A DNA stretch of 61,268 nt from a virus: positions 1 through 61,268 of IMG/VR virus record IMGVR_UViG_3300024323_000002; one strand, given 5' to 3'. A program made the translations under genes and the position numbers. Within the stretch, counting starts at the first letter, position 1; each line of letters opens with the position of its first letter. Of the stretch, positions 11,360 through 41,693 are shown piece after piece. Under the pieces are notes generated by a model. That model did no database searches, was not told where the DNA came from, and saw only the letters and a list, made by a program, of their open reading frames with translations.

Positions 11360-13513
11360 ATGCTCGATATTACCACGTTTCAGCAAAAGAACTACGCTCA
11401 CGGACAGAAAACCACCTTAGATTTCGCCGCTTTCTCCAGACTTTTCGCGCCGGATTCACTGACATGGCTCGAGGGCGAGCCGACGAAGGAGGCGATCGAG
11501 GAGGCAAAGGACCGCTCGCCGTTGTGGTGCCCCAGCGTCTTCGAGGGGGACAAGCGCTCAGCCAAGACCGTCGTCGGGTCGTCTGCCCTGGTGTTCGATC
11601 TCGATCGAGAGGGCGAGGCTGACGGCGTGCGGCTCGAGGGCGTGCTCGGCTGCCTCGAAGGAGTCGATTGCTGGTGCGTGCACTCGACGGCCAAGGGCGC
11701 CCTGCTCTCCCCGGGCCGGACCAAGCTACGCGTGATCCTGCCTTTGGCGCGGGCCGTCGATGCCCAGATGTACAGAAAACTGTGGCACTCGGTCAGAGAT
11801 GAGTTGGGCCTGCCGGCTGACGAGACGAAGGTTGGGCCAGAGTCGTGCTTCTTTCTGCCGAGCGTCTTTTCGGCGCATAGAGACCGGTACGTATACGTCT
11901 GCCGAGACGGCGCCCCACTAGAAGTCGGTAACGGGATAGTCTCACTCGACCTGAATGGCGCCGGGCTGGGTAGCCAGATTGAACGGCACATCGAGCGCAT
12001 CAGGACCGTACGCGTCAATAAGGCTAACGCCCTGGTGGAATCTGGAACGGGGTTGGGGGCTATCTGGGTGCGGTCGGGCCAGTCGACATTCGGCAAGGAA
12101 GACAGCTGGCTAGCGGTCGAACAGGCGCTGCGTAGCAACAAGGTTATGGTCTCGGGCGTTGACGACTGGCTTGAAGCTAGGGGCCATTTCGAACGCGGTT
12201 GGGACTACGGCGTCAAGGTACAGCAGGAGGAGAACGCTACAGTCGTAGCGAATGACAACGGTCGGGTTGCCAACACCGACCGTAACCTGATTCTGATTCT
12301 GCAGGGGCTAGACTGCATGGGTGTTGATAGGCGCAAGCAGGTCGCCGTCTACACCGCTAGGTGCCCATGGGCTATCTCGGCGAAGCCTGGTGACGAGATA
12401 CCCGAGACAGACGCTGCAGAGCTGGTCAAATGGCTGGGGTCTGAGTACCGACTAAATGTAACTGTGTCGAAAGCCGTAGACCTGATGTTCAGGATAGCTG
12501 AACAAAAGAAGGTCGACTGCCTACATGATTACATCATGCGCATGACGGGACCAACTGACCTGACGCTAGCTAGACAGCTTCTATCTACCTTGCTCATTGA
12601 GCTGATGGAAGCTGATGATACGCCGATCAACCGAGCGATTAGTCTCCGTTGGCATATAGGTCTGGTAGCTAGACAGATGAAGCCTGGTGTCAAGTTTGAC
12701 AATGCTATCGTGCTGGTCGGGAAACAAGGTGTGGGCAAAAGTAGCTATCTGCGCGAGCTGTTTCCCGAAGAACTGCAGCTTTGTTGCTTTTCCGACAGTG
12801 TCAGTGTCGATGGTCGCGATGCAGCGCTCGCCTATTCGCGCTTCGCCATAGTTGAATATGGCGAGCTAGCTCACATGACGCGTAAAGGCATCGAGGCGAT
12901 CAAGCAGGAGCTGTCTGCCAGGGAAGCGACGGTCCGGCCAGCTTACGCTAGGGTAGCTAGGACATTGCTACGAACCGCCGCGATTGCTGGTACCACGAAC
13001 GAAGGTGAGTTTCTCGTCGATGTCGAGAATCGCCGGTTCTGGCCCGTCGTCGTTGGTCGACTCGACTTGAATCGACTCCGACAGTTGAGGGGGATGATCT
13101 GGGCGGCGGGTAGGGCGCTCTTCGAGGCTGGCGAGCCGTGGTGGCTCTCTGATGAGGAGTCTGGGTGGCTGCTCGGCGCGCATGAAAACCACGAGTTCGG
13201 CGACCCATGGACAGACATGGTGGCGCGGTGGCTCTCGCTGCCTGTCTCGGCGAAGGTCTGGGGGGAGGACTCGCTCGAGGCTGGCCAAGTCGTAGACGGC
13301 AAGTGGGTGGCTGTTCGTATGGCTGATTTAGGTGTCGCGGTCGGTCTAACGGGCGCAATGTCGATGGCCGACTCGAGGCGTCTCGGGGGGGTTATGCGCA
13401 AGCTTGGGTGGGAGAAAAGTCGGGGTGCGAGGCAGGGAAACTTGGATCGCCGTACGATGGTCTGGAAGAGGCGCGACGGTGATCCAGCGCGCGACGGTGA
13501 TCCAAAACCGTGA
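11360..13513 (+). CDS. Primase-helicase replication protein (prim/pol-like plus VapE-like)
   Basis: The 717-residue protein has two parts. Residues about 70-200 look like an archaeo-eukaryotic primase-polymerase domain: ALVFDLDREGE carries the metal-binding acidic pair, and CVHSTAKGALLSPGR plus LRVILPLAR follow the family pattern. Residues about 440-600 form a VapE/D5-like P-loop ATPase with LVGKQGVGKSS (Walker A), AIVEYGEL (Walker B) and AGTTNEGEFL (sensor region). It probably opens and primes the adjacent iteron origin. Two iterons encode its repeated C-terminal RDGDPARDGDP. The start has only a weak ribosome site. Confidence 0.85.
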   Translation: MLDITTFQQKNYAHGQKTTLDFAAFSRLFAPDSLTWLEGEPTKEAIEEAKDRSPLWCPSVFEGDKRSAKTVVGSSALVFDLDREGEADGVRLEGVLGCLEGVDCWCVHSTAKGALLSPGRTKLRVILPLARAVDAQMYRKLWHSVRDELGLPADETKVGPESCFFLPSVFSAHRDRYVYVCRDGAPLEVGNGIVSLDLNGAGLGSQIERHIERIRTVRVNKANALVESGTGLGAIWVRSGQSTFGKEDSWLAVEQALRSNKVMVSGVDDWLEARGHFERGWDYGVKVQQEENATVVANDNGRVANTDRNLILILQGLDCMGVDRRKQVAVYTARCPWAISAKPGDEIPETDAAELVKWLGSEYRLNVTVSKAVDLMFRIAEQKKVDCLHDYIMRMTGPTDLTLARQLLSTLLIELMEADDTPINRAISLRWHIGLVARQMKPGVKFDNAIVLVGKQGVGKSSYLRELFPEELQLCCFSDSVSVDGRDAALAYSRFAIVEYGELAHMTRKGIEAIKQELSAREATVRPAYARVARTLLRTAAIAGTTNEGEFLVDVENRRFWPVVVGRLDLNRLRQLRGMIWAAGRALFEAGEPWWLSDEESGWLLGAHENHEFGDPWTDMVARWLSLPVSAKVWGEDSLEAGQVVDGKWVAVRMADLGVAVGLTGAMSMADSRRLGGVMRKLGWEKSRGARQGNLDRRTMVWKRRDGDPARDGDPKP

Positions 13514-13768
13514 AAAGTGGATCACCGTGGATCACCCTAGGATCACCGTTGTCGACTCGGACGGTGATCCAACAAATTGTCAACGAAAGCAGAGGGTTAT
13601 AGTAGTGGATCACTGTGGATCACTGTATATCTATAAACATTCTAGCTATAAGCGTAATAGGGGTATATATAGCCCAATATAGCTATAGATAGCCATGCCA
13701 AGACACCATACCCACTCCCACGCGCTAAGTGGGTGATCTACGGTGATCCACGGTGATCCAGTGATCCA
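13476..13768. other. Iteron-type replication origin
   Basis: About twelve copies of an 11-bp unit, ACGGTGATCCA (TGGATCACCGT on the other strand), cluster here: direct at 13476, 13494, 13561, 13740 and 13750; inverted at 13518, 13528 (last base pairs varied), 13539, 13606 and 13616; degenerate at 13730 and 13760. Several neighbours share their end base. Between the two groups lies an AT-rich stretch (about 13622-13697) suited to strand opening, and a 7-bp hairpin (13710-13734). This layout, beside a primase-helicase gene, is that of an iteron-controlled theta origin. Confidence 0.85.
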
Positions 13769-13769
13769 A

Positions 13770-13839
13770 CCGCCGTTCTGCTGGTTGCAGACGTCTGCCT
13801 TATATGCAGGGTTCGCTGGTTCGATCCCAGCACGGCGGA
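13770..13839 (+). tRNA. tRNA-Ile (anticodon UAU), short D arm
   Basis: The acceptor stem CCGCCGT (13770-13776) pairs perfectly with ACGGCGG (13832-13838). The T arm is GCTGG-TTCGATC-CCAGC. The anticodon stem TCTGC/GCAGG encloses loop CTTATAT, giving anticodon UAU (Ile, codon AUA). The discriminator is A and CCA is not encoded. The D region is only 17 nt and non-standard (TCTGC-TGGTT-GCAGA), so the molecule is about 70 nt and its function is not certain. It lies directly after the last iteron. Confidence 0.72.
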
Positions 13840-13841
13840 CC

Positions 13842-32016: not shown

Positions 32017-32304
32017 CTATTTGTGGCGTCTCACGATCCAATCAGCCTCATCGTCTAGTTCTGCAAACGAGCTAACATTGTCGCCGTGCTCAAATGAACC
32101 GAACGATAATGCAGCGCGAGCCACACGATCGTAGGCTTCAGGGCAGTCTGCAGACATTGTTGATTCATCATGCGGCGATCGTCGCAACCCAGCTACACGC
32201 GCTATGCGTTCGCCGTTGCGGCATATGTTCACCGAATAGTGAATGCTGTCTTCAGCAAGATTGATATTGAGCTTTAGTTCACCGCAATATCTAGACACTG
32301 ACAT
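32017..32304 (-). CDS. Small phage accessory protein, 95 residues
   Basis: ATG 32304 follows GGAGGT. CPEAYDRVARAALSFG is a signature of a common small phage family of unknown function. First gene of the leader-hairpin cluster, so its promoter should lie in 32305-32700. Confidence 0.6.
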   Translation of the reverse strand: MSVSRYCGELKLNINLAEDSIHYSVNICRNGERIARVAGLRRSPHDESTMSADCPEAYDRVARAALSFGSFEHGDNVSSFAELDDEADWIVRRHK

Positions 32305-32318
32305 TGTTACCTCCACAC

Positions 32319-32345
32319 AGATCGGCGGCACTGTGCCGCTAATCT
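32319..32345 (-). promoter_or_regulatory. Leader stem-loop before the 32304 gene
   Basis: AGAT-CG-GCGGCA-CTG-TGCCGC-TA-ATCT, two stems with an internal loop, followed on the minus strand by GGAGGT and ATG. Confidence 0.6.
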
Positions 32346-32667
32346 GGCATGTACGTAGGCGCCACACGTCTCTCACTCGTGTTACGCCTACGCGTTGCCA
32401 GACTGCGACCCTCTCAAGGTCGCAACCCGTGCCATCGCACGACAGCGCGCGGGAAACCCGCCGCTAATGGTGCGTTGCTATTCAATTGTCAAGGAGCGCT
32501 GGCCACACGCGAGAGTGGCCGGTTAGGGGTGCGTGACTTGCGGCTTATCGCCGCGACGAACGTTGCTGCTTACCTCCGAAGCACACAATCAGGTGACTTG
32601 CGAACATGTATCGCAGTGCTTTGCGGCTGTCTAGCGGCATCGGTCGAGAAAACGTCAAGACGCTAGC

Positions 32668-32812: not shown

Positions 32813-32816
32813 GATA

Positions 32817-32856
32817 TGACCATACGTTGCCATATGTGACCATATGTGACCATATG
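32817..32856. repeat. Four tandem 10-bp repeats (TGACCATATG)
   Basis: Units at 32817, 32827, 32837 and 32847; the last two are identical and the first two differ at 1-2 positions. A 10-bp period puts every copy on the same face of the helix, as for a cooperative DNA-binding protein. It lies just after the terminator. Confidence 0.75.
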
Positions 32857-33093
32857 TTTTGGTGGGTTGAGCGAACGTCCGATCGGCGACCGAAACGCGT
32901 CATATAGCCCAAAACGGGGACATTCGGTCGAGTCTCGATGTCGCCTCGGCAGCGGAATATTCCGCCGCTATCGCATAACGATCGGTTCTAGCGGTATCAA
33001 GTAGCTAAATCCAACTAGGCTGTAACGCCGCCACGTCAGTGCGGCGCGACCTCGGCGCCGAGTGCCTGTTGCTCGCGCTAGGCGTCGCTAGGC

Positions 33094-33266: not shown

Positions 33267-33333
33267 CTCGTGCGCGTACGCGCGAGGCGGCGGGGCGACC
33301 GGGGTACACTTGGTTGAGCCGGATCCTGTTTTC

Positions 33334-33475
33334 GCGTCGGCCTACAGGTGGCCAGACGCAAGCGCCTAGCGCCTCGTGCAAAGCGCAAGGCAGATGCCCC
33401 CGGCGTCGCGCGCTTCGGCCATCTGCCAGAGCAAAGCGCGTTTCTGTTGACGCCGGGCATGGGCTAGGCCCATGT
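33334..33475 (+). ncRNA. Candidate structured RNA with pseudoknot topology
   Basis: The first element is hairpin GCGTC-GGCC...GGCC-A-GACGC (33334-33359). Then arm A GGCAGATG (33389-33396) pairs with CATCTGCC (33420-33427), while arm B CCCGGCGTC (33399-33407) pairs with GACGCCGGG (33449-33457). The order A-B-A'-B' is a pseudoknot or a two-state switch. Hairpin CATGGGC-TAG-GCCCATG (33459-33475) closes it, 9 nt before ATG 33485. It could be a cis-acting leader or a free RNA. Strand is assigned from the downstream gene. Confidence 0.5.
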
Positions 33476-33484
33476 GTGCATAGC

Positions 33485-33637
33485 ATGGGCAAAGCCGAAT
33501 TGTTCCAGAAGCTAGGCGCTCAGCCGTTCAAAGAGCCGGCGCGACTGCCGGCTAAGTTCGAGCTCACGCTGCCGGAGACAAACAGGCAACTCCGACGCAC
33601 GATGAAGGCTATTCGCCGCCGCAAGAAGCGGCGGTAA
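33485..33637 (+). CDS. Small basic protein, 50 residues
   Basis: It begins MGKAELFQKLGAQPF and ends in a very basic helix (MKAIRRRKKRR), suggesting nucleic-acid binding. Preceded by the structured RNA candidate. Not recognised. Confidence 0.5.
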   Translation: MGKAELFQKLGAQPFKEPARLPAKFELTLPETNRQLRRTMKAIRRRKKRR

Positions 33638-33701
33638 AGACCCCTATACCTTGGATTTAGAAGCTATTTCCCTTCGGATCGGCCTGTTTTACTCTGCCCC
33701 G

Positions 33702-33893
33702 ATGCGATACCGTTTCGACCGCGTGCCGCCAGTGATTGCTGAAGAAGAGCGCATCTACCTGCAGGAGTCGGCGCGTTCTGAGCTCTGGCACCAGACCTAT
33801 AACGCGGCGCTGAACGCCTTTATCGTGCGCGGTGCTGCCGAATGCCACGAGCAGGCAGTCATCGCCGCTAACCTAGCTCACGGAGAGCTATGA
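33702..33893 (+). CDS. Small phage protein, family D copy 1 (63 residues)
   Basis: The core LWHQTYNAALNAFIVRG and end ANLAHGEL match the next gene. ATG 33702 chosen because the upstream part of the ORF lacks similarity. It overlaps the next gene by 4 nt. Function unknown. Confidence 0.6.
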   Translation: MRYRFDRVPPVIAEEERIYLQESARSELWHQTYNAALNAFIVRGAAECHEQAVIAANLAHGEL

Positions 33894-34093
33894 AATACCA
33901 GATCGACGTGCCGGCTCCCGAGAGCGGAGGCAACATGACCGCGTACCTGCGCGAGAACGAGCGCATAAACCGCTGGCACCAGACCTACAACGCCGCAGTG
34001 ACAGGCGTCTTCGCGCGTGGCAGTGAAGATAGTGTTGCAGCGATACATCTGCTGGCAGTCACCCTCGCGAGCCTAGCTCATGGGCCGCTATGA
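33890..34093 (+). CDS. Small phage protein, family D copy 2 (67 residues)
   Basis: RWHQTYNAAVTGVFARG and LASLAHGPL correspond to the previous gene, so the two are tandem duplicates of a common small phage family. Function unknown. Confidence 0.6.
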   Translation: MKYQIDVPAPESGGNMTAYLRENERINRWHQTYNAAVTGVFARGSEDSVAAIHLLAVTLASLAHGPL

Positions 34094-39620: not shown

Positions 39621-40186
39621 TGTCCGCACCTTACGAAGATATCAACTATCTAGACATCATAAAGAAGCTCAAGGGCTACTTTACCAAGCCTGAAGGCTCT
39701 GTCGAGATAGGTAAGCCAGAAGTGCTCAAGTATGGCGCCACGGAAGCGCCTACCATCGACCTGGCCAACCGGCCCGAGCATCGCATGCCAGATGGTAGCA
39801 CTGCGACAGTGCGGTCGATGGGAGTCGAGTCAGACGGCAAGCACGTGCTGCTACCGACCATCAGCAAAGAAGGCAAGCTCTGGTCAGACGACGAGGCCTT
39901 CAATAACTACCAAAAGACTAATGAGCATATGGGTGTCTATCCCGACGATGAAACGTCGGACAGAGCCGGCGAGAAGATCCACGAGGATCAGGCCAAGATG
40001 CTCGAAGACAAGCGCAACAACCGGTTCATGGACAACTACAACTGGCTGATGAATGACTCGCGCAAGCGTCTCGGTGGCGCTGCAAAGCCCGAGGATATCC
40101 AGAAGGACATGAACCAGCGCGAGGATGTGAGGCTCCTGCTAGGCAGGACGCCAGAAGACGTTGATGACACAAACCGGACTGAGTGA
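39620..40186 (+). CDS. Phage structural protein with NRP-dGS-type domain, 188 residues
   Basis: The central part (HRMPDGSTATVRSMGVE; HVLLPTISKEGKLWS; AFNNYQKTNEHMGVYP) is a domain often seen in podovirus virion proteins next to terminase or portal genes. Its function is not established. It overlaps the terminase gene by 23 nt. Confidence 0.6.
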   Translation: MSAPYEDINYLDIIKKLKGYFTKPEGSVEIGKPEVLKYGATEAPTIDLANRPEHRMPDGSTATVRSMGVESDGKHVLLPTISKEGKLWSDDEAFNNYQKTNEHMGVYPDDETSDRAGEKIHEDQAKMLEDKRNNRFMDNYNWLMNDSRKRLGGAAKPEDIQKDMNQREDVRLLLGRTPEDVDDTNRTE

Positions 40187-41693
40187 CGCATCGCTACTTT
40201 GGCGTGCAGGCAGAATCCGTTACAAGCTCCACCCCGGCCAACTCGAACTCTACGAGAAATATAGGGCCTGGGAGCTAGCGACGTATGAAGCCCGCCTGCG
40301 CGGCGACGTTGTGCATGGCGACTGCGACTGGCCGCGCGTGTATGTCGCGAACTGCGCCAGACGCTTCGGCAAAGACTTTCTGGGGCTCTTGATTCGCATT
40401 GAAGACGCTCTGCGCAAGCCGAAGCAGATCCTAACATATGCGACGGCGCTGCAAAAGGACATTGCGTCGATTGTCATGCCGCTCATGGAGCAGATCTGCG
40501 ACGACTGCCCCAGCTCGCTTCAGCCCTACTACCGCCAGTCTTACCAGGGAGTCGAGTCAGGCTTCTACTTTCAAAACGGCTCTGTGCTGCGCCTCATCGG
40601 CCTCGACAGCAATCCAGACGGTCTGCGCGGTCGCTGGTCAAACGGCGTGACCATCTCCGAGGCCTGCTACGTCGACAAGCTCAAGTACGTCGTGCAGTCG
40701 ATCATCATGCCTCAGTTTCAGGGGCATCTCGACGCCACGCTGATGATGAACTCGACCCCTGCGCGCGATCCGGGGCATCCCTACAAAACCGAGTTCGTTC
40801 CAGATGCCATCAAGCGAGACGCCTATTCGAAGTACACAATCTTCGATAACCCTCGCATCACCAAGGCAGAGCGAGACGAGCAGATCCGAGCCCTCGGCGG
40901 CATCGAGTCTGAGGAGTGCCGGCGCGAGTGCCTCTGCGAAGATGTCCGCAGCGAGTCACTGACTGTCTTGCCCGAGTTCAACATCGGCGTGCACGTCGTC
41001 GAGCAGACCCCGCCGCCCTACGCGCTCGGCTACACGGTCGTAGACCCTGGCACCCGCGACCTCTGCGCCGTCATAGCCTGCTACTACGACTTTGCGCGCG
41101 CCAAGATGGTTGTCACGCACGACTGGGCTCAGCGCGGCGCCCCCACGAACCTCGTGGCGCGGGCTATTCGAGACGTCGAGGCGGAGGCCTTCAAGGATCT
41201 GACCTATTGGAACGATAAGATGTTCAAGAAGAACCCCGTCTATCGCTACAGCGACATCGACGCGCGCATGATCTTGGACCTCAATGTGCAGCACAAGATC
41301 AAGATCGGCGCGGCGGACAAAGACGGCGCCGAAGCCGCCCTCAATCAGCTGCGCAACGCGTTCCAAAACCAGCGTATCGAGATAAATCCGCGCTGCAGGC
41401 AGACGGTTCAGCAGTGCGAGCAGCTGATCTGGAACAAATCACGAACGTCTTACGAGCGTAGTGACGCTTTGGGCCATGGCGACTTGGTCGACTGCCTGAA
41501 ATACGCGTGGAGGCACATCAATCGGCAGCAGTCACCCATGCCGCCCTACGGAATTGTGCTGTCTCGCGAGGTCCCGCTCGAGGACATCTTCCTTCACAAA
41601 GGCGATCTGCGCTCTCCGAGCCGCATGACCAAGGCCGCCAACGACATTATGCCTCGCGGCGTCAGCACGCGCGGGCGGAGATCCCATGTTTGA
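40164..41693 (+). CDS. terL: Terminase large subunit
   Basis: ATG 40164, 509 residues. The ATPase half has CARRFGKDF (Walker A variant), VTISEACY (Walker B) and LMMNSTP (coupling motif). The nuclease half has YTVVDPGTRD and YSDIDARM, giving the acidic residues of the RNase H-like site. It packages DNA into the prohead. The RRFGKD form of the P-loop is typical of one podovirus lineage. Confidence 0.9.
   Translation: MTQTGLSDASLLWRAGRIRYKLHPGQLELYEKYRAWELATYEARLRGDVVHGDCDWPRVYVANCARRFGKDFLGLLIRIEDALRKPKQILTYATALQKDIASIVMPLMEQICDDCPSSLQPYYRQSYQGVESGFYFQNGSVLRLIGLDSNPDGLRGRWSNGVTISEACYVDKLKYVVQSIIMPQFQGHLDATLMMNSTPARDPGHPYKTEFVPDAIKRDAYSKYTIFDNPRITKAERDEQIRALGGIESEECRRECLCEDVRSESLTVLPEFNIGVHVVEQTPPPYALGYTVVDPGTRDLCAVIACYYDFARAKMVVTHDWAQRGAPTNLVARAIRDVEAEAFKDLTYWNDKMFKKNPVYRYSDIDARMILDLNVQHKIKIGAADKDGAEAALNQLRNAFQNQRIEINPRCRQTVQQCEQLIWNKSRTSYERSDALGHGDLVDCLKYAWRHINRQQSPMPPYGIVLSREVPLEDIFLHKGDLRSPSRMTKAANDIMPRGVSTRGRRSHV

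What the first reader, a model, noticed from the sequence alone, without database searches (positions are those of the whole stretch)
33334..33484. Pseudoknot-like RNA before a small basic protein
Two long pairings, GGCAGATG/CATCTGCC and CCCGGCGTC/GACGCCGGG, interleave, so both can exist only as a pseudoknot, or they compete as a switch. Other hairpins flank them and the last ends 9 nt before the ATG. A direct repeat GCAAAGCGC frames the core. I cannot match it to a known riboswitch or RNA family.
Basis: partly seen in the sequence, partly recalled or inferred. Interest (0 to 1): 0.65.

Follow-up and report, generated by a model that had tools for sequence, protein, structure and literature searches.

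The report
One-off structured leader in phage cargo slot
The interleaved base pairings before a small phage gene are really in the sequence and slightly better than chance, but they occur in only one of five known versions of this virus, so there is no evolutionary proof that they form a pseudoknot; a much better supported structured RNA lies 0.8 kb away on the opposite strand.

Summary
The pairings exist as described: P1 GGCAGATG/CATCTGCC and P2 CCCGGCGTC/GACGCCGGG interleave. They exceed chance moderately: 8 of 5000 local shuffles, and about 0.1 expected per window against two observed places. No Rfam family matches.

Four other alleles of this phage locus were found in IMG/VR. They show that 33379-33633, holding the whole core and the 50-codon basic ORF, is the variable content of a slot between two conserved DNA boxes. 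Two alleles have an almost empty slot and two carry an unrelated reverse-strand ORF. The core and ORF have no detectable homologue, so covariation cannot be tested.

Energetically the favoured fold is a nested hairpin (P2 stacked on a third stem, P3), not the pseudoknot. P1 forms first during transcription and is then displaced. Twister-sister and HDV-like ribozyme readings were tested and rejected. Best reading: an allele-specific structured 5' leader of an accessory phage gene, function unproven; a neutral GC-rich origin is nearly as likely.

The same five alleles do reveal a real conserved RNA: minus strand 32524-32304, a boxB/boxA-type leader with 9 compensatory pairs in three sequences, re-found in two diverged alleles by covariance model, absent from Rfam.

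The parts
33303..33378 (+).
   Evidence: Near-invariant in 5 alleles; only these contigs in IMG/VR carry it
33334..33359 (+).
   Evidence: Exact pairing; inner GGCC/GGCC is not kept in relatives and the outer stem only partly
33379..33633 (+). Variable slot content of this allele: structured core plus small basic ORF
   Evidence: Unaligned in the four other alleles: near-empty in L014/L018, a reverse-strand ORF in L002/L010
33378..33386 (+). Direct repeat GCAAAGCGC, copy 1 (can also pair with the 5' arm of P3)
   Evidence: Sequence
33389..33396 (+). P1 5' strand GGCAGATG
   Evidence: Exact complement of 33420-33427
33399..33407 (+). P2 5' strand CCCGGCGTC
   Evidence: Exact complement of 33449-33457
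33409..33415 (+). P3 5' strand CGCGCTT (nested on P2)
   Evidence: Exact complement of 33434-33440; part of the minimum-energy fold
33420..33427 (+). P1 3' strand CATCTGCC, inside the loop of P2/P3
33431..33439 (+). Direct repeat GCAAAGCGC, copy 2
33434..33440 (+). P3 3' strand AAGCGCG
33449..33457 (+). P2 3' strand GACGCCGGG
33458..33474 (+).
33462..33496 (+). Competing hairpin (33462-33474 with 33484-33496) that contains the start codon; the locally most stable element
   Evidence: z -3.7 for 33458-33500; the X-X'-X arrangement is unique on the plus strand of the window, 0.15 expected
33485..33637 (+). ORF, 50 aa, basic C-terminus (MGKAELFQ...RRRKKRR)
   Evidence: Codon-usage score +0.33 bits/codon, like known genes; in-frame sequence upstream of it -0.19; no homologue found
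33642..33702 (+). Conserved box 2 (ACCCC..TACCTTGGATTT..TACTCTG..ATG), downstream border of the slot and start of the next gene

Best explanation
The region is an allele-specific structured 5' leader that came with a small accessory ('cargo') gene occupying a variable slot between two conserved boxes in a divergent regulatory region of a phage. As transcription proceeds, P1 can form first. Once the 3' arms emerge, P2 stacked with P3 forms a long hairpin and displaces P1, or holds its 3' strand in the loop. The last hairpin competes with one that contains the start codon. The most likely effect is a cis-acting, fairly static damping or timing of translation of the 50-aa basic protein, not a ligand-sensing pseudoknot. 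Shown: the pairings, the slot, the coding signature of the ORF, the predicted fold order. Inferred: that the region is transcribed, that it acts as RNA, and that it affects the ORF.
For: Pairings exact and above chance. The core abuts an ORF with clear coding signature and nothing coding upstream in frame. The 151-nt stretch has the second-lowest plus-strand folding energy of 305 windows. Predicted order of folding: P1 present when the transcript ends at 33445, replaced by P2/P3 at 33460. Start-codon hairpin 33462-33496 is strong, z -3.7 for 33458-33500. Slot architecture from five alleles.
Against: One sequence only; no homologue, hence no covariation. Modest z-scores, as good on the opposite strand. 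Start codons of other genes in this phage are also predicted to be paired. No Shine-Dalgarno motif before the ORF (sequence) and no sigma-70-like promoter recognised. Exchange of P1 does not change predicted start-codon access.
Confidence: 0.42

Rival explanations
1. No RNA function: the inverted repeats are by-products of a GC-rich, palindrome-rich intergenic region (or DNA-level sites) that came in with recently acquired cargo.
For: The flanking 32.9-33.3 kb is full of GC-rich direct and inverted repeats; the core is absent from all four other alleles; folding z is similar on both strands; 20 of 305 windows have a plus-strand z below -2.4.
Against: Interleaved 8+9 bp stems are rare in shuffled sequence, as are the competing start-codon hairpins; the structure lies directly before a coding ORF.
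Confidence: 0.35
2. A true H-type pseudoknot (P1+P2), stabilised by a ligand or by the small basic protein itself, which would then repress its own translation as T4 gp32 does.
For: P1 and P2 have H-type order with a 2-nt first linker and 12- and 21-nt other linkers; the encoded protein ends in RRTMKAIRRRKKRR, which would suit RNA binding (inference).
Against: P3 competes and gives the nested fold the advantage; with P1+P2+P3 the linkers of 2 and 4 nt must span about 16 bp (geometric inference); masking the P1 strands leaves the start codon paired; no homologue to test.
Confidence: 0.12
3. A twister-sister-like self-cleaving ribozyme spanning 33456-33532, cutting between C33521 and A33522.
For: Internal loop GCUAG/GCUCAG flanked by short stems; cmscan 20.5 bits, E 0.19. 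By my reading of the positions given there, the minimal TS-like LINE-1 ribozyme has the same loop apart from one base (PMC11620745); A7 to U is tolerated in twister-sister (PMC5660989).
Against: Well below the gathering score of 34 bits; the P4/SL4 stem is missing; P1 is 4 bp with a G-U pair and P2 only 3 bp; the fold is 14-18 kcal/mol worse than the free fold; the descriptor occurs at 1.7 per Mb in the fetched loci, about 0.1 per window. The cut would separate the start codon from its own ORF.
Confidence: 0.03
4. The functional transcript is on the minus strand, and the region is part of the leader or promoter area of the leftward operon.
For: Minus-strand folding is slightly stronger, and the leftward operon has a real structured leader at 32524-32304.
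Against: About 0.8 kb lies between them; the core is not shared by relatives that keep that leader; codon usage supports a plus-strand gene here.
Confidence: 0.05

Closest known systems
Phage autoregulatory leader pseudoknots (T4 gene 32 mRNA type; from general knowledge)
   Same: Pseudoknot-capable leader ahead of a phage gene for a basic, possibly nucleic-acid-binding protein
   Different: Here a nested hairpin competes with the pseudoknot, there is no recognisable ribosome-binding site, and no homologue supports the fold
HDV-like (delta/theta) ribozymes of phages (PMC10879173)
   Same: Same order of two interleaved helices (P1 5', P2 5', P1 3', P2 3') with a small middle segment
   Different: The segment before the P2 3' strand is UUUCUGUU, without the expected catalytic-C junction; no tRNA next to it; no Rfam match
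Twister-sister ribozymes (RF02681; PMC5660989, PMC11620745)
   Same: Near-consensus internal loop GCUAG/GCUCAG at 33463-33467/33518-33523
   Different: P4/SL4 missing, weak stems, fold not competitive, score below cut-off

Membership tests
Any Rfam 15 family (riboswitches, ribozymes, phage pRNA, etc.) | Score at or above the family's gathering cut-off | tested here: not met
   Only a tRNA at 13770 in the whole window; best weak hits near the core: twister-sister 20.5 of 34 bits, SNORA77 18.5 of 42
HDV-like / theta ribozyme | Two interleaved helices P1 and P2 in HDV order | tested here: met
   P1 33389-33396/33420-33427 and P2 33399-33407/33449-33457
HDV-like / theta ribozyme | Catalytic C as first base of the J4/2 junction before the P2 3' strand | tested here: not met
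   Sequence between P1 3' and P2 3' is AGAGCAAAGCGCGTTTCTGTT, read by eye as lacking a C-N-A-A-like junction; the catalytic C is the requirement used in PMC10879173. No descriptor program was run
HDV-like / theta ribozyme | Cleavage site at the 3' end of a tRNA (theta subclass) | tested here: not met
   The only tRNA is at 13770-13841
Twister-sister | Conserved internal loop L1 with CA cleavage step | tested here: met
   GCUAG/GCUCAG; differs at the non-conserved A7 (U here) and at U64 (G here)
Twister-sister | P4-SL4 stem-loop contacting L1 | tested here: not met
   The stem falls in a deletion of the alignment; only loop letters match
Twister-sister | Self-cleavage in Mg2+ | not testable with these tools
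   Needs an in vitro assay; forced fold 14-18 kcal/mol above the free fold
Intrinsic terminator / attenuator | GC-rich hairpin followed by a U run | tested here: not met
   No terminator-like site called within 33334-33500
Conserved cis-regulatory RNA (general) | Compensatory base changes among homologues | not testable with these tools
   No homologue of the core in viral, genome, phage or plasmid collections. The same alleles do show covariation for the neighbouring minus-strand leader, so the method works when homologues exist
Autoregulatory phage leader (T4 gene 32 type) | The encoded protein binds the leader and represses translation | not testable with these tools
   Would need binding and reporter assays

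The most novel reading that the evidence does not exclude
The leader is a one-allele RNA switch in which P1 (pseudoknot or early hairpin) and P2/P3 exchange partners and thereby select between the two hairpins formed by CATGGGC, GCCCATG and CATGGGC around the start codon, controlled by the small basic protein it encodes.
Probability: 0.08. Interest if true: 0.5.

Novelty: new member of a known kind. Interest (0 to 1): 0.24.

Why it matters
If active, it would show that cargo genes in phage variable slots arrive with their own folded leader. The wider value lies in the comparison: the five alleles that give no support to this core do expose a neighbouring, genuinely conserved phage RNA (minus strand 32524-32304) that Rfam lacks and that follows a boxB/boxA-like antitermination signal.

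Tried and rejected
Rfam at gathering and at E up to 5: nothing credible. Twister-sister: pursued because its catalytic loop resembles TS-like ribozymes, then rejected on the missing SL4, weak stems, an energy gap of 14-18 kcal/mol and a background rate of 1.7 per Mb. HDV-like: rejected on the J4/2 junction and the absence of a tRNA. Switch that frees the start codon: the competing hairpins are real and rare, but the ATG stays paired in every predicted state, and buried start codons are common in this phage. Small protein: no hit in PHROGs, Pfam, phages, viral or genome contigs, or relatives' contigs. DNA homologues of the slot: none in phages or plasmids; only 15-30 nt scraps in relatives' contigs. 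More alleles: scans with TerL, a TerL alignment, box 1 and box 2 returned the same few contigs. Host: a genome scan for the boxB/boxA pattern found nothing.

Full report
Observation. P1 (33389-33396/33420-33427) and P2 (33399-33407/33449-33457) interleave. The direct repeat is at 33378-33386 and 33431-33439, and the last hairpin ends 10 nt before the ATG at 33485. In 60 block-shuffled versions of the window an interleaved pair of at least 8 and 9 bp within 80 nt occurs 0.1 times on average; the real window has it at two places, this one and a run of inverted repeats at 13476-13571. In the local 200 nt it appears in 8 of 5000 shuffles. Folding z-scores are moderate: -2.5 on the plus strand and -3.1 on the minus strand. 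Among 305 windows of the genome this one has the second-lowest plus-strand energy but only the twelfth-best plus-strand z-score.

Setting. The window is a whole linear IMG/VR virus record of 61,268 bases, with a terminase at 40161-41693 supported by PHROGs. Leftward genes lie to the left and rightward genes to the right of a roughly 1.1-kb non-coding divergent region. The ORF at 33485-33637 has the codon usage of the phage's large genes (+0.33 bits per codon), while the open frame upstream of it does not (-0.19), so the structured stretch is non-coding and the ORF probably real.

Relatives. A terminase scan found 21 contigs, of which six reach this region; three of these are identical here, giving four further alleles, L002, L010 (=L011=L012), L014 and L018. 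Scans with two conserved boxes and with a terminase alignment added none. The alleles align up to about 33378 and again from about 33634. Between them, L014 and L018 have only a short hairpin, L002 and L010 carry a reverse-strand ORF, and this window carries the structured core plus the 50-aa ORF. The core and the ORF are therefore cargo in a variable slot and have no homologue in any collection searched. Covariation cannot be tested. Only the first flanking hairpin lies in conserved sequence, and its inner stem is not kept.

Fold. The minimum-energy structure of 33379-33476 is a long nested hairpin, P2 continued by P3 (33409-33415/33434-33440), at -47.3 kcal/mol against -43.4 with P1 enforced. 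Folding growing transcripts gives P1 at 33445 and its loss at 33460, so P1 is at best a transient competitor unless a factor stabilises a pseudoknot. P1 together with P2 and P3 would need linkers of 2 and 4 nt to span about 16 stacked pairs, which is strained (inference). Around the start codon, CATGGGC occurs twice (33458-33464, 33484-33490) with GCCCATG between, giving two mutually exclusive hairpins; this arrangement is unique on the plus strand against 0.15 expected, and 33458-33500 folds with z -3.7. Masking the P1 strands shifts the balance between the hairpins in some contexts but never frees the start codon, and buried start codons are common in this phage. A regulatory switch is thus possible but not supported.

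Known families. No Rfam family reaches its threshold near the core. A twister-sister hit (20.5 of 34 bits) at 33456-33532 has a nearly perfect catalytic loop, and TS-like ribozymes lacking the peripheral stem-loop exist (PMC11620745). But the P4 stem is absent, the stems are weak, the fold is 14-18 kcal/mol above the free fold and the descriptor has a background of 1.7 per Mb. HDV-like membership fails at the catalytic J4/2 segment.

Positive control and side discovery. The same five alleles show what a conserved RNA looks like here. The window 32334-32483 has the strongest z-score in the genome sample (-7.4 plus, -6.8 minus in the sliding scan; -5.8 and -6.7 with 200 shuffles). On the minus strand, ahead of the leftward gene starting at 32304, lies a boxB-like hairpin followed by a boxA-like sequence (GCTCCTTGACAATTGAATAG, the only such site in the window) and a series of hairpins ending at the Shine-Dalgarno site. 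boxB then boxA is the order of rRNA antitermination leaders (PMC10250234 names the elements; the order is from general knowledge). In three alleles 99% of cells in 32 pairs are standard pairs and 9 pairs carry changes on both sides, against a mean of 3.0 in shuffles and 0-1 when slid. A covariance model from these three finds the two diverged alleles L014 and L018 at E 1e-9 and 2e-8. Rfam has no match. L014 has a different first gene after the leader, which favours an operon-level role such as antitermination over control of one gene. This was followed only as far as needed for the comparison.

Verdict. The interpretation as a pseudoknot or switch is unproven and energetically second best. The element is a one-allele leader of an accessory gene; a neutral origin is nearly as likely.

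Noticed in passing
window 32524-32304, minus strand (also L002 2369-2145, L010 2079-1868, L014 1386-1175, L018 620-405): Conserved structured leader of the leftward operon: boxB-like hairpin, boxA-like GCTCcTTGACAATTGAATAG, then several hairpins up to the Shine-Dalgarno site. Strong covariation (9 of 32 pairs with two-sided changes in three alleles), found in two diverged alleles by covariance model, no Rfam match. Looks like a new phage antitermination-type leader RNA and deserves its own study.
   Followed up: partly
window 32310-32443, minus strand: In that leader the stem TCTGGCA/TGCCAGA competes with CCAGATTA/CGATCTG next to the ribosome-binding site, so it could have a second, translational switch.
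   Followed up: no
Viral-contig scan (e.g. L035, L041, L054, L057): The boxA-like 20-mer GCTCNTTGANAANTGAATAG occurs in 93 stretches of IMG/VR contigs, most without the boxB-like hairpin of this phage. In several it sits right after a short hairpin and directly before a Shine-Dalgarno and start codon; in some AT-rich contigs it overlaps a -35 TTGACA element.
   Followed up: no
window 33303-33360 and 33642-33702: Two near-invariant boxes (TACACTTGG..GATCCTG and TACCTTGGATTT..TACTCT/TATTAT ending about 7 nt before an ATG without Shine-Dalgarno) border the cargo slot; box 2 may be a promoter for a leaderless transcript.
   Followed up: no
window 32816-32860: Iteron-like repeats CCATATGTGA; the same motif lies in inverted orientation in L014 and L018.
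   Followed up: no
window 33651-34093: Two adjacent small genes share a W-HQTYNAA....RG motif and appear to vary in copy number between alleles.
   Followed up: no
window 13476-13571: Cluster of ACGGTGATCCA/TGGATCACCGT inverted repeats shortly before the tRNA-Ile(TAT) gene at 13770.
   Followed up: no
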